From Pyxicephalus adspersus (lineage: Eukaryota; Chordata; Amphibia; Anura; Pyxicephalidae), in contig NC_092860.1 in NCBI RefSeq assembly GCF_032062135.1, positions 63,008,949 through 63,072,948 of the forward strand: a stretch of 64,000 nucleotides of DNA. Reading direction: 5' to 3'. Positions 11,765 through 59,415 of the stretch are shown here, piece after piece. The notes under the pieces were generated by a model. It made no database searches and was not told the DNA's origin. It saw only the letters and a program-made list of their open reading frames with translations. Every line of letters begins with the position of its first letter. Position 1 is the stretch's first letter. The position numbers were made by a program, and so were the translations under genes.

Positions 11765-11927
11765 ATTTGCCTTTACTGTTTCTGCACAGAATTTTTTCTT
11801 GATTGGTGAACTGAATCACTTCAAAGATTTCTCCTTTACTGATTGACAGATCTTTTCCTCCACCTCTCTTGTTTCCAGCACTTGGGACTACCATCATACG
11901 AGTCAGCACTTTAATTTCACCTTCAAA
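11765..11927 (-). CDS. FYB/PRAM1-family adaptor, SH3-like exon
   Basis: A clean internal exon of 163 bp. The acceptor ttcttccttcttcag precedes it and the donor AAAT|gtaagt follows. It encodes FEGEIKVLTRMMVVPSAG, then KRGGGKDLSISKGEIFEVIQ, then FTNQEKILCRNSKGK, ending one base into the next codon (expected Tyr of a GKYGY motif). This fits the C-terminal helically extended SH3 domain of FYB1 (ADAP), FYB2 or PRAM1, haematopoietic adaptors acting downstream of immune receptors. There are no stops or frameshifts. The upstream exon at 59331-59415 ends in phase 0 with RKKFK, which joins this exon as the family predicts. The next exon (GYV... to the C terminus) was not found to the left. The paralogue cannot be decided from this piece. 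Confidence 0.82.
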
Positions 11928-13204
11928 CTGAAGAAGGAAGAAGATCAAAAAAACGTGTACACAAAATATTGAAAACTATTACATTATAGAGAATAGTTTA
12001 CTTTGTAATTTTGCTTTTTGGTTTAGATGTTTTTAAATGTTCTGGTTTGTGTTCAGAATGATTTGAGAGCAACATTACAAACATAAAGGTGAACTTAGTC
12101 GGCACTTTAAAATATCCTTAAACTACCCTTTTCTCCCCCTGTGTAGTGTAATTTACAGGAAATACTGTCATTACAAAAAAATACATAAGATCTATTCATA
12201 AGAACTGACACAGTCATTAAAAAAAATATAATTATGTCATGTCTGTGTCCAAAATGTATGTAAGTTAAAGCGGGCATGACCACATATACAGTAGGTGTAT
12301 GTGATAGTAGTAGGAGTTTTCTACCAAGGGTGGAATTAGTAGAAAGAGAAATAATCAGCAGGGATCATGCAAGGATGGGTTGTGAGGAATGTGAGGAGCA
12401 GAGATGATCTTAAGGGATCTATAAGGGAATTCCATGTGAGAAGCAGGGCTGAACTAGTTAGCATTAGGTATTAGTAAAGCAGAGAATATGTATGCACTGT
12501 GCAGGTCTGTATGTTTAGAATCCCTCGGCATAAGTTTTTTTATTGGTGTCTGTATCAAGTGTTACATGATTTTGAGTATTGTGGACAGGAATATTTTTAT
12601 AACTTTTTACAGTTATGCACAATCCATTTGTCAACTCGGGGATCGATTTTTTTCCCCTATTCTTCTTTCTCTTCCCAATCTGAATCTGTGACACAGTCAT
12701 AACGGGTAGTAGCACAAACAGGTGGAGACTTGATTCGGAGAGACAGAAATTAGGGTAGAAACCTGGAGTTACTGGCCAAGTTCCAACTTATGACTATAAT
12801 AATAACAGTTACTAAAATTTTTGTTCATAAACAAGCTCTGTCCACCTATATGATGAAGTGTAACTCTTTTCCCATTTAATGGCACATTACACATGTAAGG
12901 CACACACTGATTAATTAGTGATTGTCACCATCTCAACCTGTACTTTTGAGTTAACTTGCAGTTTATTAGCAAGAGTGCTAAAGTTTGCTTCACAGGGACC
13001 CTATAGGACTAAGGGTCCATCTATATTAGCTGTGCAAAGCAGATGTTTGCTGTCTGACCCCAACTGTATGTCAGAGAATGCAAAATCTTTATCTATCTCA
13101 GGTCATTTGCTTTCCATCTGACCTCCCTTCAGCATACTCAGTGTGCCCAGTCTACTGATCATGCTTTGTGCCTCTTCAAATGCCCTCTAAACAGCGTCCA
13201 ATGT
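11928..13204. other. Intron sequence without recognised elements
   Basis: AT-rich sequence just upstream of the adaptor SH3-like exon (minus-strand sense). No transposon ends or coding similarity seen. Short frames at 12488-12715 overlap on both strands and look random. Confidence 0.5.
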
Positions 13205-13307
13205 TTTTTTGTTTTTTTTTTTATCTGGGAAATGTTTTTTTTTCCTGTTGAATGAACATGATGGACTTATGTCTTTTTTCAACCTGACTAACTGTGTAAC
13301 TATGTAA
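13205..13307 (+). mobile_element. CR1/L2 LINE 3' tail fragment
   Basis: Carries the 3' terminal words 'atctgggaaatg', 'acatgatggacttatgtc', 'ttcaacctgactaac' and 'tgtaactatgtaa', as at the ends of the copies at 6.5 and 35.7 kb. Confidence 0.75.
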
Positions 13308-13738
13308 AATTCAATTTGACCTGGCTGTATATGAGCCAGCCAAGTAAATACCATATGCCATCTAGAAGCACACTAAATGCTGCTTTTTGTGAAATAGCTT
13401 TAGTAGAATATTTGAATATAGTGGTACTAATCCGGGACCATTCCATTGCTCCATTGATCTTTCTCCCAATTCATGATATAGAAGTGAGTAAAAGGGTTGG
13501 TTATATATGACAGGTCAGAGAAAACCAAAGAAATAATTTGCGTGAGAGAGGTGTACAAAGGCAGAATTACAGGGAACCCTATTCCTGATGATGGTCATTA
13601 GCCATTGTTGAAACTGCATATAAATAAAAAAAAAATCTTTAGTGGTGTCCTGATAAGTCTCCCAAATAGTATACCAATAAATGGGATTGGGTGTTGATCA
13701 AAAAGAAATGAACATGAGAATGTGCCAATCACCAAGAT

Positions 13739-13890
13739 AAGAGACTGTTGATCCAGGGAACATCCGATTGCCTCATGGAATCTAAAAGGATTTTTTTTCC
13801 CCTGTTGGAGCAAATTGTACCAGGGTTTTTTTCTTTGACTTCCTCTGGATCATTTATGTCTATAGGGTTTTATATCTGGGTGTTACAGTG
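13739..13890 (+). mobile_element. CR1/L2 LINE 3' UTR fragment
   Basis: Begins 'gactgttgatccagggaac' and includes 'cctcatggaatc', 'gagcaaattgtaccaggg' and 'gggttttatatctggg', the conserved 3' UTR of the CR1 copies. No terminal repeat tail. Confidence 0.75.
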
Positions 13891-14007
13891 CACAACATTA
13901 GTTGTAAAAAAAACAGCACTTATGCATTTTCCATTTGATATGATCTGTTTAATATGACTGTTAGTGAGCCTTGATGGGGGTTGCCTTTGAAATGCCAATG
14001 AGAATAA

Positions 14008-14431
14008 AGCTGCGTACACACTTCCAATTTTTATCGTTCAAAATGAACGACGAACGATCGATTGGGCAAAAATCGTTCGTAAAAAAAGTAACCAACGACG
14101 CCGACGAACGAGGAAAGTCGTTGGAAATGAACGACCGGACCGGCGGATCGGATTGGACAACGATCGTTGACCATCGTTCGTGTGTACGATCGTTCATTGA
14201 TCGTCCATGGTCTGAGCATGCGTGATGAACGAACGTTCGTTCACTTCCTGTCATGCACGTCACTTCTTGTATCGCTCAAACGATCGCATCTATTGTGTGT
14301 ACAATATCTACGAACGATCGTGTCGTTATCTGTATGTACAGGATCGGTGCTATACGATCGTTCGCAGATATCGTGCAGGATCGTTCGTCGTTCGTTTACC
14401 AACGATAATAATTGGAAGTGTGTACGTAGCT
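14008..14431. mobile_element. Harbinger-type MITE, 424 bp (copy 1)
   Basis: The ends agctgcgtacacacttcc and gtgtgtacgtagct are inverted repeats extending inward (cttccaattwttatcgtt). The 3-bp duplication TAA lies at 14005-14007 and 14432-14434, which fits PIF/Harbinger (TWA). The interior is very rich in cgttcg and cgatcg. Copy 2 at 42614-43037 has the same length and nearly the same sequence; copy 3 at 55908-56338 is diverged. Open frames on both strands (13961-14615) come from the palindromic composition. Confidence 0.85.
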
Positions 14432-14698
14432 TAAATCTAGCAGGATGATTACAGCTGGAGATTGGAGCCAAGCAACCATAAGGGAAGATAACACTTATTT
14501 GAGCAGGAAGATGGGGGTTGTGTATGAAAGGATCAACTTCAAGAACTTCTCCAATCATCCTGCTTGGTTTATAAACATCACTGCTAACTGATGGATGAGT
14601 CTGAGGACTTGCCACCAGTGCAACAGTGACATCTACTAGAGAATACCTCTAGGCACATATGAACAGTGTATTTCCAGATGTGGGGTTCGGAGGACAAC

Positions 14699-14970
14699 TG
14701 TCACGGCTCCACAGAGCAGAGTGGTGGACCCTCTGTGTCACTAGCCCAGTGGGTGGAGACGTGCATGGGAGGCAGAGTCTAAGCAACAGCTCAGTCTTCT
14801 CCAAAACCTCTAGAGGTGAGGATGTTGTGCGTCGACCTGCTGCCAAGTTGCTGCCCCCGTGCCCACCAAGGCAGGTGACTGGTAACTAGCAGGTACAAAG
14901 CATGGTGCCAGAACGAGAGCAAGAGAATGGTCAGGCAAGCCAAAGGTCCGGGCAGGGCAATGAATCATTT
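14699..14970. mobile_element. Possible gypsy-type LTR fragment
   Basis: Starts 'tgtcacggctccacagagc' and later has 'ggtcaggcaagccaaaggtc' and 'gtccgggcagggcaa', words I associate with amphibian gypsy LTRs and their flanks. No second end or target duplication found; weak call. Confidence 0.3.
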
Positions 14971-15079
14971 TACTTGGCTTTATAACTATTCTTTAGTTTC
15001 TCTTAAATTATTTTATATGTGTTAATTCTTTTCCTCTGTTGATAAATATCTTGTAAATTAAGATCTGTATGATTATTTA

Positions 15080-15385
15080 CCCCCTAACGGTAATCCCGAG
15101 TGTGACTCGGGGGGATTTTAGATACCAAAAGCGGTAATCCCGAGTCACACTCACAAAGCTAAAAAAAAACCCCCACTTACCTTGCTCTGTTGTCGTCCCC
15201 CATAGTCCTTCTGGTTCCTGCAGGTCCTGGGGACATGTTTTCTCCCTCAGATCTCCAGCCGTGAAGTGAAGAGCCAAGATAACAGGGCTTCCCATGATGT
15301 TTGCGTGGGCGGAGCGGCGGGAAATTCAAATAATTTTGTATTGGATTCGATACAAAATAGCTGTATTGAATCAATACAAAGACAT

Positions 15386-15429
<44 letters not shown>

Positions 15430-15645
15430 TATAAATGCTACTGTACACTTGTATTACATTTTAACTATTTTTTATTTAACAGATTTTTTTTAAGTTTATT
15501 ATTAAATTAAATACAATTATTACTATTGGACATATTTTGGGGAGTTATGCCAAAAATTATATTCTACAATGTAAAATAAATTTCCATGCAAAAATATTTA
15601 ATGCTTTTTGCTCGGAAATTTTGAGGGAATTAGAGCGCTAGGGGG
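15080..15645. mobile_element. piggyBac-type MITE, 566 bp
   Basis: Ends ccccctaacggtaatcccgag and the inverted gcgctaggggg. The flanks read TTTA and TAAG, close to but not exactly TTAA. The interior has the shared 'gcgggaaattcaaataattt' with tgtattg/caatac palindromic words (15325-15385), followed by a TA microsatellite at about 15390-15428. Confidence 0.75.
15390..15428. repeat. (TA)n microsatellite
   Basis: About 19 uninterrupted TA units inside the piggyBac MITE. A shorter AT tract lies at 34926-34941, and a (AT)12 tract at about 54671-54694. Confidence 0.95.
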
Positions 15646-15724
15646 TAAGTTATTAGAGGCTTAGGAAAGATACTGCTCTCAAGAAAGGGGATAACATAGG
15701 GGAAACAGAAATGTTTCTTTCATT

Positions 15725-15870
15725 ATTGGCACCCTCAGAAGTTTTTCTTTCATTGGAATATGTTTATTTCCTTAGTGGTTGAACCTGATGTATGTATGTA
15801 TGTATGTATTTATGGATTTTTTTTCAGCCTGACTTACTATCCAACAATATGTGACTATGTAAACCTTTCA
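15725..15870 (+). mobile_element. CR1/L2 LINE 3' tail fragment
   Basis: Contains 'ggaatatgtttatttcctta', 'gtggttgaacctgatg', a (tatg)n run, 'cagcctgacttac' and 'gtgactatgtaaa', matching the 3' ends of the other CR1 copies. Confidence 0.7.
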
Positions 15871-17670
15871 GGAGGTCAAAAGCCCAGGAACCAGGGAAAA
15901 GGGAAAAGAGAGGTATTTGGTATGGAAAGAAAAGGTTAGTATGCTGATAGTAGACCGACCAAATATTTTAGGCTATCCTAAATCCTAAAATTATGTGTGA
16001 GGAGAGATAGCAGCCAGGAGATAGCAGTAATATCTACAAACTCACAATAATAGGATTCAAGACAAACCCACAAAGGCAAAGCTGGGCCAGCAAACAGTGA
16101 TAATAGTGGGACAATATGAGCTAAATGATATTATTTTTGAAAATTCAAAACCCTGAAGTCTCAGATGAGGTCTTCCATGGTTTCGAGTTGACGTAGAGAT
16201 CAATACTGAAAAAGGGATTGATATGATTGTTTTACGCTGGGCTGATATCTGCTTTTTTTCTTTCCTAGGCCAGCCATCTTGTGCTGCATCCTGGCCTTTT
16301 CTGACCAATAACATCCAAATGCACACACCATAGGATATTTTCCACACGAAGAAAATAATCACAAACACCTAAATTAAGCAAAACCTTTACTGAAAAAATA
16401 TTTCCCAAATAGTACAAGTAAAATATATTAAATGACCACAATGCTCCATGGAGAACAGGCCCTCCACTGGTGCTGTAATGGCTTCACACCACATGCAAAC
16501 TCAGCCGCCTACAATCATTTAGTCACTTTGTCCATAGCAGTGTGTACAGGTCATTGGTTAGAAAGTGAGTATAAAAGACAACTACCATCTGCTTGTTTTT
16601 GTCTTCTATTTGTCCTTATTGGTGTGGTCTACCTTTACTTCCTGTCCAATACATGCAAAAAGAAGTGAAAGGAAATTTCTCTAAAGTGAGAATTCCAGTT
16701 CAAACTACTGATACTAAAACAGGTTATTGTAACCCATCACCACTGAAAAAAGAAAATGGGTTATGCCATTGCAGGCACACTGCCTTGGGTGCCATTTAAA
16801 ATTATGTATATTACCACAATAGACTGCAGAATCCTTTTGTTTTCGGGTTGTACAAGACTGCAGGGATTGTTTTTGGATGGGAGATATATTTCTCCAGGAT
16901 ATAGAGCATAGACTCCAGGGTGTTAACTTGGGAAAATAGTCCAGCATAGTGGAAAGCAATGCTGCAAAGGGTTGCTGTGTTTGAGCAAATTTTAGGGCCC
17001 AGACTCTAGAATGGAAAGGAAGGTACTACTAAAACCCTAGAATCCTGTTCTCGTTGTGCATATACCTACAAAAACGACTTTCTTTCTATCACATATAACA
17101 GTAAGGTGCATTACACCCCAATGATTTTTATCTGGTGAGCTCAACTATAAGGTACTGAAGTTCTTTGGTTCTTCCAAGTAGTTCTATCAGTTGCTATCAA
17201 AGTACCTGCCAAGTCAAACCACCTGCTGTATGACCTTGTTTTGCTGGGGCTTTTGAGAGACAACAGAGGAGCAATAATTCGCAGGATAACCATGATGAGA
17301 TTAGGGCAACATCTTCTATAGGAGTACTGAGGATGCTTTGAGGCTGTGGGCACAAGGGTGCCCCAAGCAACACTGAACAAGACAAAGTAGATAGCATGCT
17401 GTCCCTGAGCTGTGTCATCATATACCCCCCCCCCCCCTTCTAATTCTTTCTTTTTTGATTCTTTCTTTTTTGTCTGCAGCATTTTCTCTGTACAGTCTGT
17501 ACAAGCCATTAGGGCTACTGACTGCACCCTGCTGTGAATTCTGCTGACATCTGCTAACCAATGTGCTAGCTGCTGCCTGGGCACAGGATGCAACATGAGA
17601 TGCTGTGCTGTGCTTAGTTTAGTAGGCCATCTGTCATTTTAACAGGTGCTATGGCGCCCTAGGCCACAGA
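15871..17670. other. Intron sequence without recognised elements
   Basis: No transposon ends recognised. A minus-strand frame at 17141-17596 spells VYDDT next to a C run. The resemblance to adaptor YDDV motifs looks accidental (see rejected list). Confidence 0.45.
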
Positions 17671-17679
17671 CTTTGTAGG

Positions 17680-17800
17680 TTATTATTATTATTATTATTA
17701 AACAGGATTTATATAGCGCCAACATATTACACAGCGCTGTACATTAAATAGGGATTGCAAATGACAGACTAATACTTGCAGAGTATAATTATATGTCCAA
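17680..17800 (-). mobile_element. Rex1/L2-type LINE 3' end fragment
   Basis: A (tta)n run followed by 'ggatttatatagcgccaac', 'acacagcgctgtacatt' and 'aaatagggattgcaaatgac'. The same 3' end, diverged, begins the large LINE at 55195. The element lies on the minus strand, with the (tta)n as its tail. Confidence 0.7.
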
Positions 17801-17937
17801 ATCTGTTCCAATTCCTGTGTCAATTCCCTGGATTAATTCCCATTGCACTTATAATTTGGGCACTTGAGATTTGGGCACGTGACCAGGGTCCCAACGTGAC
17901 CTTGCCTGTTGTTTAAATAGGTTAGCCAGAAATCAAG

Positions 17938-18830
17938 CCTTTTTTTAGAGGGTGTGGTAATTTTAATAGAGGTAATAGGACCCAACCAAGAAAAAGGATG
18001 ACGATGCCAACTCGAAATTTGGCACTTACGATGTTAAAATATTAGAGGGTAATTGGCCGAATAAAGCAATCATAGGTTCCAAGTAAGGTTTAAATAGATG
18101 AGGTGATGGGTGGCCCAAGAAAAAATGTTACTGAAGAAAATGTACGATGTTAGAAGAAAGAAATCAACTGATTCATTTTGGTAATAGTTAGACCAGAGAT
18201 TTTAGAAAAGTGGGATAAGATGGAAACAAGGTTAGGAAGGGGGGAAAATAGGTTGATTGAGAGTTCAGCGTATTTCATTATTAAACAATTTTATGAGTCA
18301 CCCCCACCTCTATACTAAGTACATAAACATTAGGCTGAATAAAGTGAGTCCACCCTCAAAAACCAATATAAAGGGTAACGGTGAAAGCAGACAGCTCTTT
18401 CTAGTGCCGTGGGCAATGGAAAAGCTACTAAAACAATAAATAGGATATTTACCTTGTGCCTTTTAACTAGAGTGATTTATTCCATGCAGGAACATTATCC
18501 AAAAAGCCCTATTTAGTGTCAATATAAAAAAAAATACTACCACAAAATGCCATGTATATCTAAAGCCAGTAATATACTCATTTGGTGATTTTGCTGTAAA
18601 ATATAGAAAAGGTGAATAACATTTGGGGTGATTCCAGATGCTTACCTACCAGAGACAAAGCATACTTGATCTTTAAGGTTTAGAACACTCAAATATGAAA
18701 TAGTGGCAAAAATCTTAGCTAGTAATTTATTATCAATGTTAAGAGGAGATATTAGCCTATATTTGTGAGGGTTAAGCTGATCCTTTCCTTGTTTGGGCAG
18801 CATTACAATGTGAGTGACACACTTACCCTC
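17938..18830 (-). mobile_element. L1-like ORF2 RT fragment
   Basis: The reverse complement of 18600-18815 encodes NPHKYRLISPLNIDNKLLAK and DQVCFVSGR, the L1 RT fingers motifs ('YRPISLLN...DQVGFVPGR' type). That of 17938-18250 encodes NLFSPLPNLVSILSHFSKISG and HLFKPYLEPMIALFGQL, the post-RT region. The order is right for one minus-strand copy. Frames are broken and there are no ORF1, endonuclease or 3' end. Confidence 0.65.
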
Positions 18831-19068
18831 TCCTACCTAAACAGCCGGCTCCTCTCTTTTGCATATGCTGAGAGACCTGATCCCGAGTGCCTGCTTTTCC
18901 AGGTTTGATCACCCCTCCCGCTGGCCAATCAGGTTGGCTCAGACACGTTGCTCGAGGAACATGTTTCCACATTAGTGAGAAGCCCCTAGCTATGCCGAAT
19001 ACAGTTCCTGTTTCGCTGCTCCTGGTGTCCCCAGCATCTTCCTGTGTGCCCCGCTATCCCTTGTGTTC
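18831..19068. other. Unassigned GC-richer block
   Basis: More GC-rich than its surroundings (e.g. 'cccctcccgctggccaatca'), ending where an L1 tail starts. It could be a 5' UTR or LTR fragment. No ends identified. Confidence 0.3.
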
Positions 19069-19480
19069 TTTTTTTTATTGAAAGGGTTTTTAAATATTTA
19101 TCAAACAATAATAAACATATAATAACCTCATATAAACATCAGAGAAAGTTAGCAGAAAGATTGAATATAGGAAGAGGAAAAGGGGTGGTGTAATAAAAAA
19201 TAGTCTGAAAAATCTCCAATGATCAGTCCATTTTGCTGGGGAGAAAGTACTTATACAATTCAAATACATTAAGAGCCACATTTTATTATATGTAAAGCAA
19301 TATTATAAGTTAGGGTCCAGGCGGCATTTTAATTCTGCAGTGTCTCTATAGTATATCCAGCTATGCCAGATAGCATTGTATTTTTCAGACTTGCTGGAAG
19401 GTCTTCCATTAACATGATGCCATTACCTTATGAATGCATAACTTTACTGTTGTTGGTAAAGTGCATGTCCAATAGGTAGA
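19069..19480 (-). mobile_element. L1-like 3' end fragment
   Basis: On the minus strand the sequence ends '...accctttcaataaaaaaaag', a polyadenylated LINE tail, at about 19069-19090. Upstream sequence is AT-rich 3' UTR without readable coding. The right boundary is approximate. Confidence 0.5.
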
Positions 19481-19722
19481 TATGGGAAATGGGAATGTTT
19501 CAAATCTGTTCTACATAAACACACTGCAAAATATATTCCCATGGGCAATAAGTTTAAAAGGCAAAAATTAAAACCTATGGGACTCACAGCTAAGCGTTAC
19601 AAAAAACATGAATAAGAAAAGGGCATTCCAAAATATAAAAATGAAAGAATATAACAAAAGATGTAAAGAAAAAACAAATGTGCAAAACTTTAAACTTCAA
19701 AAAGAAAGACAGATTGTAAACC
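19481..19722 (+). mobile_element. CR1 LINE internal fragment
   Basis: Nearly the same as 3275-3535: 'aaatgggaatgtttcaaatc', 'aaacacactgcaaaatatat' and 'gaataagaaaagggcattcc' recur in order. This is the endonuclease-RT linker of the CR1 family. It is followed directly by the L1 copy B tail. Confidence 0.8.
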
Positions 19723-21542
19723 CCCACACTTTTTTTTTATTTTAAAGATTTTATTGAAATTTTCAAATAAAGTAAACAATAAAATTACACAGCAAATTTG
19801 CATAGAATAACAGGAAGAAAAACAAAAGGAGGGTGAAAGGCCAAATATGGGGTTCAAAACAAAAGAAGAAGAGTGACAATCAGTACCAGACATCAGTAGA
19901 ATAAACATATGAGGTCAAACATAGTTTAATACCTCTTAGGTAACAAAGTCTAAATACAGCAGGCAATAAAGTAGTTTTCCATATTCACAATAAAAAATAT
20001 AATACAAATAAGTACAACAGTACAAAAATAGCGTTATTCACAGATTTAAAACTTGTGAGGTATACAGGCATATCAAGTTTAGAGTGAGATCATAAAGGTT
20101 GGCAGGTAGAGGTACCTTTTAATCAAACACCCCTTTTGTAAAGATTTAAAATTTAAATTGAAAAAAAAGAAAATAAGAGAAAAATGGGGGGGGGGGATAA
20201 AGTAATGTTAAGGGTTACACAATGATTGCTCTGTAAAATTAGCTTGAATTAAACATGATTATAATCTAACCACGGGTCTCATATGTTGTAGAACTTGTTA
20301 AGGTTGTTTTTAAGTGTACAGTACAATTTGTCATTGACCATTATCCAGTTGAGTTTGTTAATGGTGAACTTAGGTGCATAATGGAAGCTTTCCAGTAACA
20401 AGCAATGGTAATATGAGCAGCTAACAGGATATATTTAATTAGCTTAGTTAACTGATTTGGAGCTTTATCCTCTAATTGGGGAAAAAAGAGCACACTCTAT
20501 TTTCCTTGATGTTTACCTGGGTGACAGAGCGTATTAGGTGAAAATGCGGATCCAAAATCTCTGAACCCTAGGACATCTCTACCAAGCACGGAGTAAAGTG
20601 CCAGTCTGACCACATCCTCAGGAGAGACAGAGGGATTGGCTTTATGGATCCTAAACGGGACCATGTACCATCTCATCAAAACCTTATAATTGGCCTCTTT
20701 TATCGAAGTGTTTACAGATGTTTTGGAAATGGACACTGAAAAATCCTACTATTCCTGGGCACTCCACTCCACCTCCAAATCTGACTCCCATTGTTTCAAA
20801 TGGGAAAGTTTATTATGGGGTGAGAAAAAAATGTTATATACTACCGACATCCTTCCTTTGCATTCAGTTGTAAAACTAACAGTGTTACAGTGTACCCAAT
20901 CCTCCCAATTTTATAGGAGCATAGAATGTAGTTGCAATAATGCGGTGAAGTTTGTCTCCCAAAACAAATTTTTTGGGTTTGTTTTGGATATACCCAGACC
21001 AGCCTGGGTAAAGCATTAGGGAAGGTGCGGAAAATATAAAGCTATCTGGGTAAAGTGATCATTTTAATTGCAGCTATTCTACCGAACCAGGGGTAGGGGG
21101 GCTAGAACGTCATCTATTCAAATCTCTAGCTATTGCACAAAACAGGGGTGGGTAATTAGTACAGATCATGATGAGAAGATGTAATCTGAATGCCTAGATA
21201 GGTGATTGCTTTGGGTTTCCATGTGAAGTCAAAATTATCTTTGAGTTGGGTGACTATGTTTGGGGGCAGTGAAATATTTAGGGCCTCTGCTTTGGCTCAT
21301 TGAGTTTTAGACCTGACACCAAGTCAACAATTATGTTCTATAGGACCACATCAGATGCCCTTGATGTCAGGATTAAGCTACATTGCTAAGGGTTATTAGC
21401 AATGTAGAACAGCTATTGCTAAGGGTTCAATAGCTAAAGCGAAAAGTAAAGGGGAGAGAGGGCAGCCTTGTCTGGTGCCTCTGAGGATATTAATCAAGGG
21501 TGAATAGTGCCCTTTAATTGCTATTTTGGTGTGTGTGTGTGT

Positions 21543-21567
21543 NNNNNNNNNNNNNNNNNNNNNNNNN
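21543..21567. other. Assembly gap (25 N) in a TG repeat
   Basis: 25 N follow gtgtgtgtgtgtgt. The true repeat length is unknown. Confidence 0.98.
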
Positions 21568-24660: not shown

Positions 24661-24664
24661 TTGT

Positions 24665-26345: not shown

Positions 26346-26428
26346 GTTATTGAGATCAGCAATTGCTGCAAGCGACGGAAACTCGCATTTGTGTTGTTGG
26401 ACTGGCCATCCCTGCAATATTTATACTA

Positions 26429-27773: not shown

Positions 27774-27788
27774 TGTTAGACGATTTGA

Positions 27789-34158: not shown

Positions 34159-34160
34159 TA

Positions 34161-46613: not shown

Positions 46614-46617
46614 TTAA

Positions 46618-49320: not shown

Positions 49321-49399
49321 GTACCCCCCCTTCTACGGGTGGTCTCCGGACACCCAGGACCGACCTTATTCGTATTAGCCCTGTGGAAAGCTTTCACTA

Positions 49400-50382
49400 G
49401 GCGACTAGCATTAACGTCGGTCGCTGGAACCCACATTCTTTCCTCTGGACCGTACCCCTTCCAGTGAACGAGATACTGGAGAGATCTGCGGAGAATTCGG
49501 GAGTCCAGTATCCCGGCAATCTGAAATTCCTGGATTACCATCCACCATGACAAGTGGGGGAGGCAAGGAAGACGGTTTCGCTGGTTCGACATATCTCTTC
49601 AACAGTGATTTGGGGAACACATTATAATTCTTTAACGCCTGTGGCTGTTCGAGACGAAAGGCAACCGGGTTAAGAATGGCGGAGATCTTATATAAACCAA
49701 TAAACCTTGGACCCAACTTCCAAGAAGGTACGTTCAACTTAATGTTTCTTGTGGACAGCCACACAGAATCACCCACTCTTAGGTCTGGACCACTCATACG
49801 TCTCTTGTCAGCCATACGTTTATACTTGTTGCCCATCTTTTTTAAATTATTTTGAATTTTCTGCCAAATAGATGACAAAGAAGAGGAAAATCTTTCCTCT
49901 TCAGGAATGCCTGAAGTCTCAGTACCAGAAAATGTGCCAAATTGCGGATGGAACCCATATACCCCAAAAAACGGCGACTTATTTGTGGACTCCTGCCTAC
50001 GGGTATTTATGGCAAACTCAGCCAAAGACAAATATGAAGACCATTCCTCCTGATTCTCTGAGACAAAACATCTCAAATAAGTCTCTAGATTCTGGTTAGT
50101 GCATTCCGTCTGTCCGTTCCACTGAGGATGAAAGGCCGAAGAGAAGGACAATTGCACCCCCAGATGAGTGCAGAACACCTTCCAGAATCTGGAAACAAAC
50201 TGAGTCCCCCTATCAGACACCACATCCGAGGGAATACCGTGTAGCGTCACAATGTTATCGACAAACACTTGTGCGAGGGTTTTAGCATTAGGTAGCCCTG
50301 ACAATGCAATAAAGTGTGACATCTTACTGAAGCGATCAACAATCATCAGAATCACGTTTTTTCCCGAGGAATTCTCGAACAC
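49400..50382 (-). pseudogene. Gypsy integrase with chromodomain
   Basis: 50382-49411 is the longest open piece (323 codons). The catalytic core D,D-35-E is visible: IVDRFSKMSHFIAL, SDRGTQFVSRFW and FHPQWNGQTECTNQNLE. GPDLRVGDSVWLSTRNI and KLGPRFIGLYKISAILNP (GPY/F module) follow, then a frame change to the chromodomain, DSRILRRSLQYLVHWKGYGP and EERMWVPATDVNASRLVKAF (49520-49400). The zinc-binding N-terminus is broken off near 50385. The chromodomain likely guides integration to marked chromatin. Confidence 0.9.
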
Positions 50383-50599
50383 CTTGTGTCATTATTGGTA
50401 TGGAACAAACAACTTCCCCGAAGGACAAGAATCCAGTGCATCTCCCTCTGCCTCAAGATCGGGATAAAGGGCGGATATTACTACTCCTTCAGACAATATC
50501 AGACCAGGATCTTCCGAATCACCCCCCCATAAAAGCTACGCGACAAAGCGTCCGCCTTGACGTTCTTAACCGCAGGGCAATAGGTGACAATGAAATTGA

Positions 50600-51480
50600 A
50601 CCTGGTAAAAAACAATGACTATCTGGTCTGTCTTGGGTTCAGATGTTTAGCCGACTCCAAATACACCAGATTTTTGTGATCGGTAATTACCGTAATAGGA
50701 TGAATCACTCTTTCTAACCAATGACGCCATTCCTCAAAAGCCAACTTAATGGCCAGCAACTCTCTATTACCTACGTCATAATTTTTCTCTGGATTTGAGA
50801 GTTTTTTAGAGAAGAAAGCACATGGGCGTGTGACACATCAGGTTGCACCAGTATAGTAGCAGAAGCAAAACATTCCTGAAGCAAAACAGCTGAAAAGGCT
50901 TGTAATGCCGCCTCCGACCAGGCTGAGAAATCTGAACCTTTCCTCGTCATGTCTGTTAAAGGTTTAACCACAGTCGAGTAATTAAAAAAAATTTACGGTA
51001 GTAATTGGTGAACCCCAAAAATCGCATAAGTGCTTTCAGATTTTCGGGTCGATCCCAGTCCAACACCGCACAGACTTTTTCAGGATCCATATGAAAACCT
51101 GAAGATAAGATTAAGTAACCCAGGAACTGCAACTCCGGAACTGCAAAAACACACTTCTCCACCTTCGCATACAATTTATTCTCTCTAAGGATCTGTAACA
51201 CTTGTTTCACGTGATCCTGATGAGTCACCATGTCTTGAGAATAAATTAGTATATCATCCAGATACACCACAACAAACCTGCCCACCAGATGATGAAAGAT
51301 GTCATTAATAAAATGTTGAAAACCGCATTGGTTAACCCAAAAGGCATGACCATATTCTCAAAATGACCCTCAGGGGTATTAAAGGCCGTCTTCCATTAAT
51401 CCCCCTCTCTGATCCTTACCAGATTATACGCCCCCTCTTAAATCCAATTTAGAGAACACCTTGGCGCTGACAATCTGATT
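50600..51480 (-). pseudogene. Gypsy RT catalytic part and RNase H
   Basis: 51285-50956 encodes [18 protein letters not shown] (catalytic Y-L-D-D at about 51251-51264), KCVFAVPELQFLGYLILS and MRFLGFTNYYRKFF, with the connection domain after it. 50971-50600 has broken RNase H motifs (VKPLTDMTRKGSDFSAW, the usual D-A-S region damaged). Several stops. Confidence 0.85.
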
Positions 51481-52320
51481 GAACAAATCCTGGATTAAAG
51501 GAAGGGGGTAAAGGTCACGGACAGTAATACGGTTAAGCTCACAGAAGTCCAATCATGGCCTCAGAGTTCCGTCCTTTTTCTTAACAAAGAAAAACCCGGC
51601 GGCTACTGGAGATTTGGATGGTCCAGCATGACCCTTAACCAAACTCTCCGTAATATATTCTTGCATGGCCGCTCTTTCGGGTTCAGAAGGATTATACAAC
51701 CGACACTTGGACAGCTTAGCTCTGGGAATAAGGTTGATGGGACAATCATACTCCCGATGTGGAGGTAACTCCTGGTCCCCACTTTCAGAGAATACATCAG
51801 AAAACTCAGCAATAAACGAAGGTACAACCTTAGTGGTTACAACAGAAAGCAATGTGTTAAGACAGTTGTCTATGCAATAATCACTCCAATCAAGAATCTG
51901 TCTTGCTTGCCAATCGATGGTAGGATTATGTTTGCTTAACCATGGTAAACCTAGTACCAACGGAGCAGGCAGACCCTCCAGCACAAAGCACGAGATAGAT
52001 TCTTGATGAAAATCACCCACCTTTAAACGGATGTCCTGCACCATTTGTGACAAACATTTCTACCTGAGTGGAGTGGAATCAATTGCAAACACAGAGATAT
52101 TTTTGTCTAATGCACTAGTTGTTAACCCATGCATACGGACGAACTGACCATCAATTAAGTTAACCCCTGCCCCGCTGTCAATAAACACTTCAATTCCCAC
52201 AGTTTTGGAGTCTAGCGCCACCTCAGCAGACAGGAGAAATCGAGTACTACCGGTAAATGACAAAAGTAAATTCTCTGGTTCCCAACACAGACCACCAAGT
52301 GAGAGATGAGGGTTAAACAC
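51480..52320 (-). pseudogene. Gypsy protease and RT N-terminus
   Basis: The protease active site reads FIDSGAGVNLIDG (about 52150-52190, D-S-G-A). The next piece, 52053-51553, has the linker LVLGLPWLSKHNPTIDW, then YDCPINLIPRAKLSKCRLYN and GFFFVKKKDGTLRP, the RT entry. A frameshift and stop separate the two near 52055. Confidence 0.88.
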
Positions 52321-52329
52321 ACATTTTTT

Positions 52330-53256
52330 TTTTGTTTTGACCTTGGCACTGAACATAAGGACAGATGTTGACAAAATGTCCCGGTTTTCCACAGAAAAAA
52401 CAGAGTCCCTTCTTATGCCCAAAGTTCTTATTCCCAGGTCCAGAGGTAGCTCCCCCCAACTGCATAGGTTCTTCACTGGACATGAACTCAAGAGTCTCTC
52501 CACCCAATGCGTCAGAGGAGGCCGCCATCTTATATGATTGTACGTCCTGGGATTGAGAAACCTTAGATCTCCCCCTCAGGCGTCTATCCTACAGGTTTAA
52601 CTATCGTACAGCAAGGAACATAGCCGCATCCAATGACCCAGGATATTCGTGAAACGCCAATGTGTCCTTCAGGCTCTCAGATATCCCTTGACAGAATTGA
52701 CTACGGAGAGCCGGATCATTCCACTCAGTATCCGTAGCCCACCTCCTAAATCCAGAGCAATAGGTCTCCGCAGAACGCTTACCCTGCTGCAAGCCACGCA
52801 ACTTGGTCTCGGTCACGGAGACCCGATCTGGATCATCATGGATAAGACCTAGCTCTCTGAAAAATTAATCTACCGACCGGAGGGACTGAGATCCGGTCGG
52901 CAACGAAAAAGCCCAAGACTGAGCATCGCCTTTAAGCAATGAGATGATAATACCCACTCTTTGACTCTCATCCCCAGAAGAGTGTGGACATAGTTTAAAT
53001 ATAGTTTGCACGACTCCCCGAACTGAATAAAATTGTCGATTCCCCCGGAAAATCTGTCTGGGAGCGCCACCTTGGGTTCAGGGCAGGCCTGATTCCTGCT
53101 GTCAGAACTAGCTGCCTGTGGTCTCTGTATGTGTGAGATGGTCGTGCAGAGGTCAGCTACCTTCAAAGACATCCCCTGCAGTTGTGCGACCAGTGCAGAG
53201 ATCGTATCTATAGTTGCACTGACACAAACAAAAATAGCGGTTTTGGCGGTTGATAA
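52330..53256 (-). pseudogene. Gypsy gag (capsid and CCHC nucleocapsid)
   Basis: Pieces: 53256-52870 (KVALPDRFSGGIDNFIQF), 52816-52601 (TETKLRGLQQGKRSAETYCS, FRRWATDTEWNDPALRSQF) and 52528-52313 with the zinc knuckle CFFCGKPGHFVNIC (CX2CX4HX4C, 52361-52402). This protein packages the element RNA. It is interrupted by at least two frameshifts, between the first and second piece (near 52950) and near 52600. Confidence 0.88.
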
Positions 53257-53812
53257 TGTCACGGATAACAGGGAGGGGAGGGAAACAGAAAGGTAAATAC
53301 AAGGGACTAGGCCTCCAATGGCTAGGGAAAAGGGAATGGTGACCCCTTACAGACACCCTAACCTAGCCCTAACTCCTGACAGTATGAATATCCCCTGATG
53401 GTGGGAATACTCATACACGGGAACCTAGGCCCTAGTAGCCCTGCATAGCCCTAGGAGTAGTGACTGGGCTTGAGACTACTGGTTCTTTCCCTGATGAAAG
53501 AATCAGTGTCTCCCTGAGCCCTAGTAACAACTAAAGAACAACAAAACACCAAAAATAGTTCAACTTATCTTAATAGCAAAATAGAGAAGCGGCTCTTCAC
53601 ATCCCAGAAGTGAATATCAACCGCATAGCATGAAGTGTGAGGCCAGACTAAATGGAGGAGCAGTAATGACCATCAGCTGCAGCTGATACAAGGGGTGTGG
53701 TCATTACAAACAACAACACAGAAACAAGTAAAAACAAAGAGACAGTCAGATAACCTCACTTGCAGCTTGTCTCACAGATCTTCTAACTTCAGTCACGGAA
53801 GGGATGGTGACA
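53257..53812 (-). repeat. Gypsy 5' LTR
   Basis: 556 bp, TG...CA ends. It would hold the promoter and polyadenylation signal for the minus-strand element. The next internal bases in element sense are ttatcaaccgcc. Confidence 0.92.
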
Positions 53813-54090
53813 GCAACGTCCTGTGTACAGCACCTAGGGCCCCTGTTTGGATTTATTTGTAGGTATATATGTTCTTCATATGACTTCTGGGTAAAATTTT
53901 TTATTCTTACTGGCGTATTTTCATCATATAATTGTTTTTCTTGGTGGAATTGTTTGTTTTCATCTTCAGCTTTTTTTCCGTTAATAAAAGTTGGACATAT
54001 ATTGGTAAGAGTATATTTTCTTTTTCATTTTAGGATCTTTTTTTTTCTTTAAATATTTCCCTAATTAGATATTTTGGTTATTACAAATCC
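53813..54090. other. Unassigned AT-rich sequence
   Basis: Right flank of the gypsy element. 'gcccctgtttggatttattt' here resembles the left flank 'agcccctgtttggactgc' (48770). Confidence 0.45.
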
Positions 54091-54099
54091 CTACAAATT

Positions 54100-54670
54100 G
54101 GCATAAGGAATGCCAATAAGGAATGGGTGAACGTAAAGTATCTAAGTGTTTTTATTTATTTAAGTGTAGTTACAATACAATGTAAAACAAAAATTGGGGT
54201 TTTATGTGGTCCAACATTTCACATATTCATTATAGTTAAAAAAAGGTCACTATATTTACAAAGCATTTATTAAACATATATCTATTACATTGCACCACAA
54301 AAACAAGTGAGAATAAAAAGTCACACTGGTAATAAGATATTGCCATGCAAAAATGCTATAAATCTATTAATTCATCTCAATGTGTTTCAAAAAATATCTT
54401 GGTCAGGAGGTATTTCCATACTGTGCTTGATTATGGCTACAATGGTACATGTGTATATAATAATATTATTTGACAAATAATAAAAAAAATACATAATATT
54501 TGCAAATATAATACTTTTTATAACCACCTGGTAGTTAAAAAGTCACATATTTTTGAATAATTTGTTGGTTACAAAAAGTAATATATTTTAATATATAATA
54601 ACCACTATGAGGTGGTTACAAATAGTAATATGTTTTTGTATTTTAAGAACTTAAGTGCTATTTATTATTG

Positions 54671-54702
<32 letters not shown>

Positions 54703-54985
54703 TATAATTGTAGCCAATATCGAGTGCAAATTATGAACACTACTCCTGACGAAGATATTATTTGAAACGCATTGAGGTGGCAACTGTCAGAGTTGATGGC
54801 TTTATTGCTCTTTCGGATGGCAATATCTTAATACCTATGTGGCTATTTATTCTCACTTGTTTTTAAAGTGGAATGTAATGGATATATGTTTAATAAAGGC
54901 CTTGTAATTGTGATAACTTTTGTAGTTTAATTACTCAGTGAAATATTGGTTCATATACAGCCCCAATTTTTGTTTTACATAGTTT
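54100..54985. repeat. Inverted repeat with hammerhead-like cores (PLE-type ends)
   Basis: The left half (about 54160-54420) is the reverse complement of the right half (about 54735-54985). Paired words include 'atgtaaaacaaaaattggggtt' with its complement, 'acaagtgagaataaa', 'atctcaatgtgtttcaaa' and 'ttcaggaggtattt'-like words. Each half holds a core: 54746-54768 (+) CTGACGA ... GAAAC and 54384-54404 (-) CTGACCA ... GAAAC. No coding lies between, only AT-rich sequence with (AT)12. It looks like two opposed PLE termini without a body. Confidence 0.65.
54746..54768 (+). ncRNA. Hammerhead-like core
   Basis: CTGACGA, weak A/U stem agat-att-attt, then GAAAC. It fits CUGANGA/GAAA. The opposing copy has one core base changed (CTGACCA). 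Confidence 0.45.
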
Positions 54986-55574
54986 CCTTTAAAAGTTGAC
55001 TTTAGGGGTGAGGTCACTGCTACATTTCAAAACATTTAACTTTCAGATTGACTTTCTTTACAGTACCAGCATATATACAGAGGTAAGTAAAGAAAGGTTT
55101 GCCTAAAATAAATATCTTAAATAAATCCGAAAATTCCTTGTATACCTAAAGTATTAGGAGGAGAGCTGAAGAACAGCTGCAACCCTCTTTTTATCTCCTG
55201 ATCATTATTATTATTTTTATTAATATACAAGATGTATATAGCACCAAGACATTTTGCAGCACTGTCTACTAAATAGGGGTTGTAAATGACAGACAGATAC
55301 AGACAGACAGTGACACAAAAGAAGGAAATGACCTTGCCCTACAGATCCTTCAATCTAGGAGGTCGGGGAAGTAGTACACAATTGGAGAATAAGAAATTGT
55401 GGGAAGTAGTGAGGGTTTTAAGAGATAGAAGAAGACGAGTAGGCAAGTTTGAAAAGATGGGTTTTGAATGCTCTTTTAATGAAGCAGAAAGTAGCAAGCC
55501 GATTAGGACAAGGAAGACCATACCACAGAGTCAGAGCAGCTCTAGAAAAGTTTTAGAGCTGTGCATGTGACCAG

Positions 55575-57609
55575 TAGTGTTGGTCGAATAGCTCATTATT
55601 CGATTCGGCAGCTATTCGCTCGAATATAGCAAAGAAATTCGGGTGGTCGAATGTCAAAGTCGAACACCATTAATGTCAATAGGAGGAAAAATTCGGGTTT
55701 TTTTCAGCACTTTGTAGAGCTTCTACAGCCTCCAAACAGATGTAAAAAGATACATTATAAAAGGATACATAAAAAGATACTTGTAAAAAGATACATTGTA
55801 AAAGGCTACATAAAAAGATACATTATAAAAAGATACATAACACTATTACACACCCCTGTACTTCACATGAAGATTAAAGAGCACCTGTCAAATCAATTTT
55901 AGGCTAAAGCTAGGTACACACTTCCAATAATTATTGTTAGAAAATGAACGATTACGACCGATCAACGATTATGCACAATTATACTTAAACAATCATATTG
56001 TGCACAATTCTGTACATGCTGTAACAATATGATCATTCATATATAATCCACCAACAGTGTCCACACACTAGATACAATCGTTTGAACGATGCAGGGAGGG
56101 ACATGTAAAGGAGAAAGTGTACCGCAGAAACATGCACAATCACTGAACGACAAGATACTGTACACACGATAGATAGTGAAAGATCGTCGGCCAATCAGAT
56201 CCACCGTGGTGGTCGTTCATTTCCAACGACAATCCTCGTTCGTCCGCGGCCTTGGTCACTTTTTTTTGGCCAATCGGTTGTTCATCGGTCGTTCGTCAGT
56301 CGTTTCTAACGATAATTATTGGACGGGTGTATGCAGCTTTAGTCTACACGGACTGTTTCCCCAGCGTTTAACCTGAGGCTTTTTAAAGCACATGTTTGAA
56401 GTCCCAATGCATTCCCATGGGCTAATCTACACCAGGACGTTTCCTTCAGGCACGTTTTTGAGCGTTATCTTAAACGTTGCTTGCAACATTTAAAAAATTA
56501 AAACGCTGGATAAACACGGGAAAATGCTTTCATTGAACTCAATGGAGGCTTTTTCAAGCGTTTTTAAGCTTTTATGACAGCTTCCACTGAAAACAATGGG
56601 GGCTTTTATAAACATTTTTAGCAGGACTTTGGAATCTGGAAGCCCCCTTTAATAAGGAGACTCCCAGATCTCCACCGCCCCACCCTGGGGAATGAGTACA
56701 GGGGTACATAAATCCCCTTACTCATTCCCTGAAAGGGTTAAAATATAAGTAAAAAATAGGACAAGGCTTTAATGTTAAATTATTTTATTAATGTGTGTGT
56801 GTTTGTGTAATTAAACTTTTTTTTTTACAGGTTATCCCAATGACAGGAGGATTTCCAGGGTTGCAATGAACAGAGCCCTGAAAATCCTCCTGACAGTGAG
56901 GGATTGCAGGGCACTAGGGGTTAAATGAGGACAAGCCTCTCCATTCACCCCTAGTGCTCTGGCTGAGGTTTTACATTTCTCAGCCATTCAGCACTAGAGA
57001 TAAATGGGGAGACTTGTGCCCATTCATCCCTAGTGCTCTGTGATTGGCTGAGAAATAGGAAATCCTGATGACAGCTCAAGCATCATCTGTGACGAGTGAT
57101 CAGGGGAGCAGAGCTGTCAGCATAGTAAAGCTCCGCTGATTGCTCTGCTTCCTGATTGGCTGAGCAAAGGGAAACCCTGATGATGCTTGAGCTGTCATCA
57201 GAGTTTCCTATTTCTCAGCCAATCATAGAGCAGTAGAGGTATGAATGGAGATAGTATCTCCATTCAACCTTTATTGCCCTCGTATTGCCTGCGGTTACAG
57301 CTAATTGAAGGCACCTGCTTTCAATTAGCTGTGACCGCAAAGTTCCCACGGTCCAGGAATCCCACAATGACATTATGATTCATAATGTCATTGTCAGATA
57401 ACCTGTAAAAAATAAAAAAAGAACAAGTTTAAAATAAAAAAACACATACACAACACAAAAAATAAATACTTTAAGAAAAAAAAACATTTTTTTTTTCCCC
57501 CCGAATTTTTGCTATTGAATCCCGTGTTTTTCGGGTCGGGTCTACCCGAATTCGAACAGCCATATTCGGGTCAAATATAGGGACAACCCGAATTGGAACA
57601 TCAACACTA
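55575..57609 (+). mobile_element. hAT-type nonautonomous element, 2035 bp
   Basis: Ends tagtgttggtcg and the inverted ...caacacta, with an exact 8-bp target duplication gtgaccag at 55567-55574 and 57610-57617. It is nested in the Rex1/L2 LINE. Subterminal TTCGAAT/CGGGTCGGGTC words are shared with the copy at 454-1050. Inner parts contain inverted blocks (e.g. tcatcaggg/ccctgatga around 57060-57200). There is no transposase frame. Confidence 0.92.
55908..56338. mobile_element. Harbinger-type MITE (copy 3), diverged
   Basis: Ends agctaggtacacacttcc and gtgtatgcagct; 3-bp flanks TAA (55905-55907) and TTA (56339-56341). 431 bp. The interior resembles copies 1 and 2 but many CG dinucleotides have changed to TG/CA, so it is older. 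It sits inside a repeat whose empty form is at 34551. Confidence 0.82.
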
Positions 57610-58875
57610 GTGACCAGGTTATGAGTGAACAATTTATTGGTAGGCCAATGGAGGAGTTAAGAAAGCTGATGGGGGTGTATTTTTCTACCAGGTCAGAAAG
57701 GTAAGTGGGAAAAGAACTGTGGAGGGAATTGAAGGAAAAGCACAGGAGCTTGAATTTGATTCTAAGGTGAAATGGAAGCCAATGGAGAGAACTAGAAAGA
57801 GAGGCAGCAGATGGGTAGTGGTGGAAAGGATAGATAAGTCCAGCTGCAGTATTCATAATAGATTGTAGAGGAGAGAGTTGGGTTAGGGAAATACCAGAGA
57901 GTAGGATGTTACAGTGGTCCAGACGAGAGATAAGAGCATGTTCAAGGAATTTGGTGGTCTATGGGGGCAGGTAGAGAATGATTTTGGAGATGTTGTGTAG
58001 ATGAAAGTTACAGGACTTGGAAATGTTGCGAATATAGGGGGTAAATATAAGGCCAGAATCAAAGGTGACACCAAGACAAGTGCCTGAGGGGAGGGATGAA
58101 TAACAGTGTTGTTAACAGGTAGAAATAAAACAGGGAGATTTGGAATTGGGGGGGGGGGGGGATGATGAGTTCGCTAGACTGAGTTTCAGAAATCTCTCAG
58201 CCATCCAATATGGCTCACAGGCAGCATGAAACCTTTTCCAGGACTGAAGGAGACAAGTCAGGGGTGGACACATCAGCATACATATGATACGGTACAGGAA
58301 GATATGAGACTACCGAGTGATGTGAGACTTAGCTCCGATGAGGTCATTGGCCAGTTTAGTAAGGGCTGTTTCGATGGAATGGGCAGCTCAACAGCCAGAC
58401 TAGAATGTGTCAAGGAGAGAGTTGGTGTTCAGGTAACCAGTGAGTCTTTTATAGACAAGGCGCTCAAGTTTGGAAACATATGGGAGGAGGGAGATAGGAC
58501 GGTAGCTAGAAGGCGGGGGGACATCCAGTAAGGGTTCTTCAAGAAAAGGAAAGCGTTTAAAAGTGAAGGGTTCGATACCAAAATAAAGGGAAAGGTTGAA
58601 TAGTTTGGTTAGTGCGGGGGCCAGGGTGGAGGAATCGGCACCAAGTAGATCAGGCAGAATTGAGTCAAGTGGACAGGAAGTAGATGGAGATGACTTCATC
58701 CAGACTACCAGGGCTGGGGAAGGCTAGTGATGATTTACAGGTGGAGGGGGTGGATATGGTTCAGTAGCACAGTGAGCAGTGAGTCTGATTTTGACAATTT
58801 TATCTCTAAATTAGGTGGCTATGTCTTGAACAGATAAGGTAGTTGTGGGAGAAGCAGGTGTGGGGTTTAGGAGGT

Positions 58876-59330
58876 AGTAAATTGAAATTATTTATTTATT
58901 GAGAGAAACTTAAGAAGTAACTACAAATACTCTCAGAAGGAGCAATCTTTGAAATCCTGTGTCCAATTACTACAACCACCCAGTTCAATAAGTGGCACTA
59001 ATTTGTCTGCTAGGCCTGCTCTTTAGCCCTCTTTCTTCTCCATTTGAAAAAAAAAACAGTGTTTCCAAGGACCTTGTCTATATGCAATTCAGCTAGTATA
59101 ATGTGTCACTGCAATCACTTTGCCTCTCTCATTGTAAAAATAAAAGTGGAGGAATTTAACAGCCTATTTGCACCTATTTTATGGCATTAGTGCTGAGACG
59201 TGCAGAATATCTCAACTATTTGGAGAGTCAACAAAGATCATTAAAAAACAGTACGGAAATATGGAAAAATATCATATTAAATAAATTAATGTATAGTTGC
59301 TGTATTTTATAATTCCTGTCTTTTTAATAC
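58876..59330. other. Intron sequence without recognised elements
   Basis: Adjacent to the adaptor exon (donor side); nothing recognised. Confidence 0.5.
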
Positions 59331-59415
59331 CTTAAATTTCTTTCTCATTTCTTTCAGTTCTTTATCTTCTGCCTTCGTATTTTTTACATTTTCCTTTTTT
59401 GGAACTTCAGGTTTA
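59331..59415 (-). CDS. FYB/PRAM1-family adaptor, charged helical exon
   Basis: An 85-bp exon. Acceptor 'ttttctttaaacag' lies just above 59415 and donor AAG|gtatta at 59330. In the phase that ends flush, it encodes KPEVPKKENVKNTKAEDK followed by ELKEMRKKFK. FYB1-type adaptors have a Lys/Glu-rich helix ending RKKFK immediately before the C-terminal helically extended SH3 domain. The exon at 11765-11927 begins FEGEIKVL in the same phase (0), so the two join exactly. The exon starts in phase 1. No damage is seen. It is too short to stand alone; the pairing with the SH3-like exon is what supports it. Confidence 0.78.

What the first reader, a model, noticed from the sequence alone, without database searches (positions are those of the whole stretch)
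11765..59415. Two matching adaptor exons 47 kb apart: most of the window is one giant TE-filled intron
Minus-strand exons 59331-59415 (ends ...RKKFK, phase 0) and 11765-11927 (starts FEGEIKVL, phase 0) join exactly as the FYB1/FYB2/PRAM1 family requires, both with good splice sites. The intron between them (11928-59330, 47.4 kb) holds L1, CR1, Penelope, gypsy, hAT, Harbinger and piggyBac copies. A short exon like 59331-59415 is easily missed by gene prediction.
Basis: partly seen in the sequence, partly recalled or inferred. Interest (0 to 1): 0.75.

Follow-up and report, generated by a model that had tools for sequence, protein, structure and literature searches.

The report
Frog adaptor gene split by 47-kb intron
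Two short coding pieces 47,000 bases apart in this frog-like DNA join letter for letter into a stretch of a protein already predicted for the African bullfrog, so the transposon-rich DNA between them is likely one long but ordinary intron of an immune-adaptor-like gene.

Summary
The pairing is real and already in public databases. The 85-nt and 163-nt minus-strand exons join in frame into 82 residues that match, 82 of 82, residues 95-176 of P0033, a predicted Pyxicephalus adspersus (African bullfrog) protein named "PRAM1-like isoform X2". Pfam's helically extended SH3 model scores 84.9 bits for the join, 71.2 for exon B alone. Of 148 homologous rows with letters on both sides of the junction, none has an insertion there; no further exon of the gene was found in the window. 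So 11928-59330 (47,403 bases) is most likely one intron. Corrections: exon A's splice sites are weak; the intron contains a 25-N gap, so its length is approximate; hAT, Harbinger and piggyBac were not confirmed; the small exon was not missed in this species. Exon A is predicted to form the helix that the relative ADAP needs for lipid binding (PMC8152464). Side result: 27 of 29 amphibian homologs have two such domains where single-domain amniote PRAM1 has one; when this arose is unresolved. No RNA-seq was available and the genome server did not complete.

The parts
59331..59415 (-). Exon A, 85 nt: KPEVPKKENVKNTKAEDKELKEMRKKFK plus the last base of a split codon; predicted N-terminal helix of the C-terminal hSH3 domain
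   Evidence: 29 of 29 residues identical to P0033 94-122, E 2.6e-12 (the S is read partly from the acceptor AG); predicted helix 106-121 of P0033 lies within exon A's residues 95-122
11765..11927 (-). Exon B, 163 nt: FEGEIKVL...RNSKGK, most of the SH3 core; ends with the first base of the Y codon of YGYV
   Evidence: Pfam hSH3 71.2 bits alone; identical to P0033 123-176
11928..59330 (-). Inferred single intron, 47,403 bases as assembled (including 25 N)
   Evidence: No insertion at the junction in 148 of 148 rows that cover it; GT-AG ends; no other exon of the gene found by tblastn of 149 proteins
21543..21567 (.). 25-N assembly gap inside the intron; its true size is unknown
48791..53810 (-). 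Ty3/gypsy-type LTR element pieces: direct repeats at 48.8-49.3 and 53.3-53.8 kb with gag, RVT_1 and integrase matches between them, reading frame broken into several ORFs
   Evidence: Pfam rve 40.6 bits, RVT_1 54.5, gag 24.8, each above cut-off; repeats D1, D2, D11
27789..30023 (+). APE-type non-LTR (L1-like) retroelement pieces: endonuclease and reverse transcriptase
   Evidence: Exo_endo_phos 35.5 bits, RVT_1 94.9 bits; the L1 name is recalled
39357..41664 (+). Probable Penelope-like element pieces (RT and GIY-YIG-like motif), between inverted arms
   Evidence: Motifs read by eye; RVT_1 only 14 bits, E 0.043, below cut-off; no Pfam GIY-YIG match; inverted arms

Best explanation
The two exons, joined, equal residues 95-176 of a predicted African bullfrog PRAM1-like protein, so they are likely consecutive coding exons of that gene and the transposon-rich 47.4 kb between them is likely a single spliced-out intron. 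Shown: the joined 82 residues, the phases, identity to P0033, the hSH3 family match, no insertion at this point in the homologs examined, and no other exon of the gene found in the window. Inferred: that the transcript is really spliced here (no RNA reads seen), that the window is Pyxicephalus adspersus or a very close relative, and that the intron grew mainly by insertion of retroelements. Predicted mechanism: exon A supplies the basic N-terminal helix and exon B most of the SH3 core of the protein's C-terminal hSH3 domain; by analogy with ADAP/FYB1, where a construct without the helix does not bind lipid, the folded pair would bind acidic membrane lipids and orient the adaptor at the membrane. 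Skipping exon A, exon B or both would shift the frame (85, 163 and 248 nt are none of them multiples of 3), so a working transcript would have to cross the whole intron.
For: Exact 82-residue identity to P0033. hSH3 Pfam score rises from 71.2 to 84.9 bits on joining. PDB sequence match 1ri9 63.1 bits spans the junction. 148 of 148 covering rows have no insertion at the junction. tblastn of 149 proteins finds only these two exons as credible matches. Predicted helix 106-121 falls in exon A, first strand 131-135 in exon B; best PDB fold match is 1ri9. ADAP helix needed for lipid binding; PRAM-1 hSH3 the strongest binder of the three tested (PMC8152464 passages). Exon lengths modulo 3.
Against: No RNA reads were seen and the P0033 model's support is unknown. 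Exon A's splice sites are weak (donor matched or beaten by 18.8% of GT sites, acceptor by 9.1% of AG sites). A 25-N gap in the intron leaves its length and strictly its contiguity to the scaffolder. Only 18 of 147 homologs hit exon A on their own at E<=0.1. P0033 is a short model (214 aa, one hSH3) whose first ~54 residues have no counterpart in the other frog proteins printed (by eye). The structure model is poor outside the domain (mean pLDDT 66.5, pTM 0.44).
Confidence: 0.93

Rival explanations
1. Exon A is a chance lysine-rich open stretch and the true helix exon lies elsewhere.
For: Low-complexity peptide; weak splice sites; only 18 of 147 homologs hit it on their own at E<=0.1.
Against: 29 of 29 residues identical to the annotated P. 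adspersus protein, E 2.6e-12 in this window; joining raises the hSH3 score by 13.7 bits.
Confidence: 0.02
2. Exon A is the helix exon of the gene's first hSH3 domain and exon B the core of the second, with two exons unseen between them.
For: 27 of 29 amphibian homologs carry two hSH3 domains whose helices end in similar motifs.
Against: P0033 joins the two directly and exactly. The first-domain helices printed read EFRRKFQFHGE or EFRKKFQFHGE, while exon A's ELKEMRKKFK matches the second-domain helices. No other hSH3 piece was found in the intron.
Confidence: 0.02
3. The two exons are neighbours in one gene but the distance is an assembly artefact: the scaffold joined unrelated contigs at the 25-N gap, so the real intron is much shorter or longer than 47 kb.
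For: 25-N gap at 21543-21567; a published P. adspersus assembly has contig N50 of only 30 kb (PMC11646304 Table 1).
Against: Both exons are in the same order and on the same strand as in the protein; the gap-free stretch from 21568 to 59330 alone is 37.8 kb, so the intron would be long unless the gap join is wrong.
Confidence: 0.06

Closest known systems
Pyxicephalus adspersus PRAM1-like isoform X2 (P0033)
   Same: Contains the joined 82 residues letter for letter at 95-176
   Different: Nothing in the stretch compared; its other exons are not in the window
Amphibian proteins annotated 'FYN-binding protein 1-like' (Mantella P0008, Lithobates P0009, Xenopus P0019 and others)
   Same: C-terminal hSH3 88% (Mantella) and 85% (Lithobates) identical over the 105-residue query
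   Different: They have a second hSH3 upstream; whether this frog's gene has it was not seen
Amniote PRAM1
   Same: Same hSH3 family; 58-63% identity to the bird PRAM proteins P0003-P0006 over 88-90% of the joined 82 residues
   Different: One hSH3 domain in the two PRAM1 proteins given to Pfam (platypus P0048, alligator P0111) and in the single-domain rows
ADAP/FYB1 hSH3-C (PDB 1ri9) and hSH3-N (2gtj)
   Same: Same fold of helix plus SH3: 63.1 and 26.2 bits by sequence, ranks 1 and 5 by fold
   Different: FYB1 pairs a divergent N-type domain with a C-type domain; FYB1-N separates from all other domains at 100/100 in the tree

Membership tests
hSH3 family (FYB1/FYB2/PRAM1) | Pfam PF14603 above its curated cut-off | tested here: met
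   84.9 bits joined, 71.2 exon B alone, cut-off 25.7
hSH3 family (FYB1/FYB2/PRAM1) | N-terminal helix directly before the SH3 core | tested here: met
   By prediction only: helix 106-121 then strands from 131 in the model of P0033; best fold match 1ri9
hSH3 family (FYB1/FYB2/PRAM1) | Binding of acidic phospholipids | not testable with these tools
   Known for ADAP and PRAM-1 domains (PMC8152464 passages); not measured for a frog protein here
PRAM1 | Orthology to amniote PRAM1 | tested here: inconclusive
   P0033 bears the name PRAM1-like; best short hits are bird PRAM; the best tree does not group amphibian and amniote PRAM1 domains together, but the AU test does not reject such a group (p 0.385)
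PRAM1 | Single hSH3 domain | tested here: inconclusive
   P0033 has one, but 27 of 29 amphibian proteins including P0033's close frog relatives have two; the upstream part of this gene is outside the window
FYB1 | A divergent N-type hSH3 plus a C-type hSH3 | tested here: inconclusive
   Amphibian first domains fall on the C-type side of a 100/100 branch from FYB1-N, but an AU test does not reject them sharing a side with FYB1-N (p 0.472)
FYB2 | Closest match to FYB2 sequences | not tested
   No protein named FYB2 among the hits listed (one search lists 120 of 234), so no comparison was possible

The most novel reading that the evidence does not exclude
The gene is a PRAM1-type adaptor that in all three living amphibian orders carries two tandem PRAM1-like lipid-binding hSH3 domains, a two-handed membrane clamp that amniote PRAM1 lacks and that databases mislabel as FYB1; in the bullfrog its second domain is cut between helix and core by a giant retroelement-filled intron that every functional transcript must cross.
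Probability: 0.35. Interest if true: 0.4.

Novelty: already known. Interest (0 to 1): 0.18.

Why it matters
It is a clean case in which a reader of raw sequence paired two small exons across 47 kb correctly, and a public gene model agrees. The biology is ordinary: long retroelement-rich introns are common in vertebrates (recalled). Of modest use are the exon-level view (the helix on its own 85-nt exon, no in-frame skipping) and the two-domain layout of the amphibian homologs, which would affect naming and any functional comparison with mammalian PRAM1.

Tried and rejected
Tried without result: viral-contig scan for exon B's protein (27 pattern matches, none confirmed). Rfam scan of the whole window (0 matches at gathering score). 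Search for the next exon in the window (none). The genome search on the window's own assembly, eight times, never answered, so the neighbouring exons, the first hSH3 domain and the rest of the gene could not be checked. Literature: PRAM1 with amphibian gave 1 paper, on Phytophthora (listing only); hSH3/FYB/domain duplication/evolution gave 5 papers, none about an amphibian duplication by title or abstract start (listing only); FYB2/PRAM1/FYB1/hSH3 gave 8 and PRAM-1/ADAP/SH3/helical 4, listings. Papers: PMC8152464 (passages), PMC10453029 (passages), PMC11646304 (passages; section 3.1 with Table 1), PMC10794172 (passages), PMC10324214 (passages; the words Pyxicephalus and adspersus do not occur in its main text), PMC3846280 (passages), PMC7082503 (listing only). 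I found no intron-length distribution for this species, so 'giant' is not quantified.

Considered and rejected: that exon A belongs to the first hSH3 domain; that exon A is a chance stretch; that the amphibian two-domain layout is proven to be an amphibian duplication. On the last, AU tests reject none of the four groupings that needed a test (p 0.385, 0.472, 0.42, 0.41); a fifth, FYB1-C as one group, was already in the tree at 77/91; the tree has few columns. The domain profile used to count hSH3 copies was seeded with 11 domains of six frogs, so its scores favour amphibian copies. Pfam's own model agrees on two copies in all five amphibian proteins given to it (P0008, P0019, P0030, P0017, P0031), one in both amniote PRAM1 proteins given (P0048, P0111) and two in lungfish P0034 and gar P0047 (nine proteins). 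The tree used 33 proteins picked by hand out of 147, giving 58 domain rows, plus two PDB fragments and the window (61 rows). P0010, from a source without an organism name, was counted as amphibian on similarity alone, and Rhinoderma appears twice among the 29. Structure prediction used 49 of the 147 proteins.

Full report
What was checked. Exon B (11927-11765, minus) reads FEGEIKVLTRMMVVPSAGNKRGGGKDLSISKGEIFEVIQFTNQEKILCRNSKGK. Exon A (59415-59331, minus) read from its second base gives KPEVPKKENVKNTKAEDKELKEMRKKFK; read from its first base it holds four stops. The 85-nt exon ends in phase 0; the 163-nt exon starts in phase 0 and ends one base into a codon.

Family. The joined 82 residues match Pfam's helically extended SH3 domain (PF14603) at 84.9 bits (cut-off 25.7), exon B alone at 71.2. 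The best solved structure by sequence is ADAP/FYB1 hSH3-C, 1ri9, aligned over query residues 11-82, that is across the junction; the only other hit is hSH3-N, 2gtj.

The decisive hit. A protein search returned P0033, 'PML-RARA-regulated adapter molecule 1-like isoform X2 [Pyxicephalus adspersus]', 214 aa. It contains the joined 82 residues exactly at 95-176, flanked by S and YGYVK; it is the only one of 149 proteins held that does so. Mantella, Nanorana and Lithobates match at 88%, 88% and 85% over the 105-residue query, whose last 23 residues were taken from Rhinoderma. This answers 'easily missed by gene prediction': not in this species. In Rhinoderma darwinii one model, P0007, does start inside exon B and lacks exon A's residues, while another Rhinoderma model, P0030, includes them.

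One intron. Of 149 rows aligned (147 homologous proteins and two PDB fragments, last hSH3 domain of each), 148 have letters on both sides of the junction and none has a residue inserted there. tblastn of all 149 proteins held against the window (E<=0.1) finds exon B with 147 of 147 homologs and exon A with 18 of 147 (a short lysine-rich peptide; P0001 and P0002, the exons themselves, are left out of these counts). Five other matches reach E<=0.1: three gar proteins at 29197-29334 (E 0.005 to 0.036, inside the non-LTR element), P0023 at 62065-62220 (E 0.022, plus strand) and P0006 at 32545-32688 (E 0.092); I read these as chance. Neither the upstream exon nor the downstream YGYV exon was found in the window, so the flanking introns would also be long: at least about 4.5 kb upstream, unless the upstream exon sits in the 636-N gap at 60266-60901, and at least 11.7 kb downstream.

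Corrections. Exon B's splice sites are strong; exon A's are weak (donor AAG|GTATTA, matched or beaten by 18.8% of 6919 GT sites in the window; acceptor by 9.1% of 7808 AG sites; matrices from memory). The intron holds a 25-N gap at 21543-21567. The published P. adspersus assembly GCA_004786255.1 has scaffold N50 157,522 kb, contig N50 30 kb and 31.64% repeats (PMC11646304 Table 1); P0033 lies on a 157,633,650-base record. Whether the window comes from that assembly was not tested.

Content of the intron. Pfam supports a Ty3/gypsy-type element (gag 24.8, reverse transcriptase 54.5, integrase 40.6 bits) between direct repeats at 48.8-49.3 and 53.3-53.8 kb, and an APE-type non-LTR element at 27.8-30.0 kb (endonuclease 35.5, reverse transcriptase 94.9 bits). 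A second non-LTR fragment at 21.6-23.4 kb is below cut-off (RVT_1 28.7 against 29.6; L1 RBD 15.6 against 22.4). Penelope at 39.4-41.7 kb rests on motifs read by eye plus a sub-threshold RVT_1 match (14 bits); it sits between nested inverted arms, and inverted-repeat layouts are described for Penelope elements of a rotifer (PMC3846280 passages). hAT, Harbinger and piggyBac were not confirmed; 20 open stretches of the window were given to Pfam, not all of them.

How it likely works. In the model of P0033 the helix 106-121 falls wholly within exon A's residues (95-122) and the first strand starts at 131, in exon B's; confidence is 85-94 in blocks from 111 to 190 but low elsewhere (mean pLDDT 66.5, pTM 0.44). 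The top fold match is 1ri9 (E 1.2e-05), with 2gtj at rank 5. For ADAP, a construct without the N-terminal helix shows no lipid binding, and PRAM-1's hSH3 binds acidic phospholipid vesicles more strongly than either ADAP domain (PMC8152464 passages). So exon A, by analogy, supplies the lipid-binding helix and exon B the core. Exon lengths 85 and 163, and their sum 248, are not multiples of three, so none of these skips would keep the frame. This step is inference from lengths, not from transcripts.

Side result. 27 of 29 amphibian proteins (frogs, three caecilians, three salamanders; one from an unnamed source, one species twice) have two hSH3 domains; the exceptions are P0007, a fragment, and P0033. 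Among the other rows, 51 single-domain rows are amniote PRAM1 or PRAM1-like (47 bear a PRAM or PML-RARA name, P0064 has no named organism, and P0003-P0006 are short), one single-domain row is a duck FYB1 (P0079), and 66 rows of fish, lungfish, birds and unnamed sources have a first domain at 16-42 bits and a second at 91-134 (the profile was seeded with amphibian domains and so favours them). In a 61-row tree amphibian first domains group with the C-type domains, apart from FYB1-N at 100/100. AU tests do not reject their sharing a side with FYB1-N (p 0.472), nor amphibian plus amniote PRAM1 as one group (p 0.385), nor amphibian first domains as one group (0.42), nor all amphibian domains as one group (0.41). 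So the two-domain layout is observed; whether it is an amphibian duplication or an old state lost in amniotes is open.

Verdict. Real, correctly read, already annotated, ordinary in kind.

Noticed in passing
P0007 to P0033, P0080, P0081 (protein homologs, outside the window): 27 of 29 amphibian homologs carry two hSH3 domains, both closer to PRAM1/FYB1-C than to FYB1-N, though most are named FYN-binding protein 1-like.
   Followed up: partly
window 36323-48083: Nested inverted arms: 36323-38295 against 41596-48083 (the right arm interrupted by about 3.8 kb), around a probable Penelope-like element.
   Followed up: partly
window 38800-39283: A lone copy of the gypsy-type terminal repeat, 86% identical to the copy at 53.4-53.8 kb and about 65% ungapped to that at 48.9-49.3 kb.
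   Followed up: no
window 60266-60901: 636-N assembly gap upstream of exon A; the missing upstream exon could hide there.
   Followed up: no
P0007 and P0030 (Rhinoderma darwinii): Two separate gene models on a record of the same length (669,129,486 bases) both contain exon B's residues; either the exon is duplicated or the gene was split by the predictor.
   Followed up: no
P0033 residues 1-54: The first ~54 residues of the bullfrog model resemble nothing in the other frog proteins printed (by eye), and the model lacks the first hSH3 domain; it may be truncated or mispredicted at its start.
   Followed up: no
window 1559-1858 and 26157-26339: Short tandem arrays: period 141 (2.1 copies) and period 69 (2.7 copies).
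   Followed up: no
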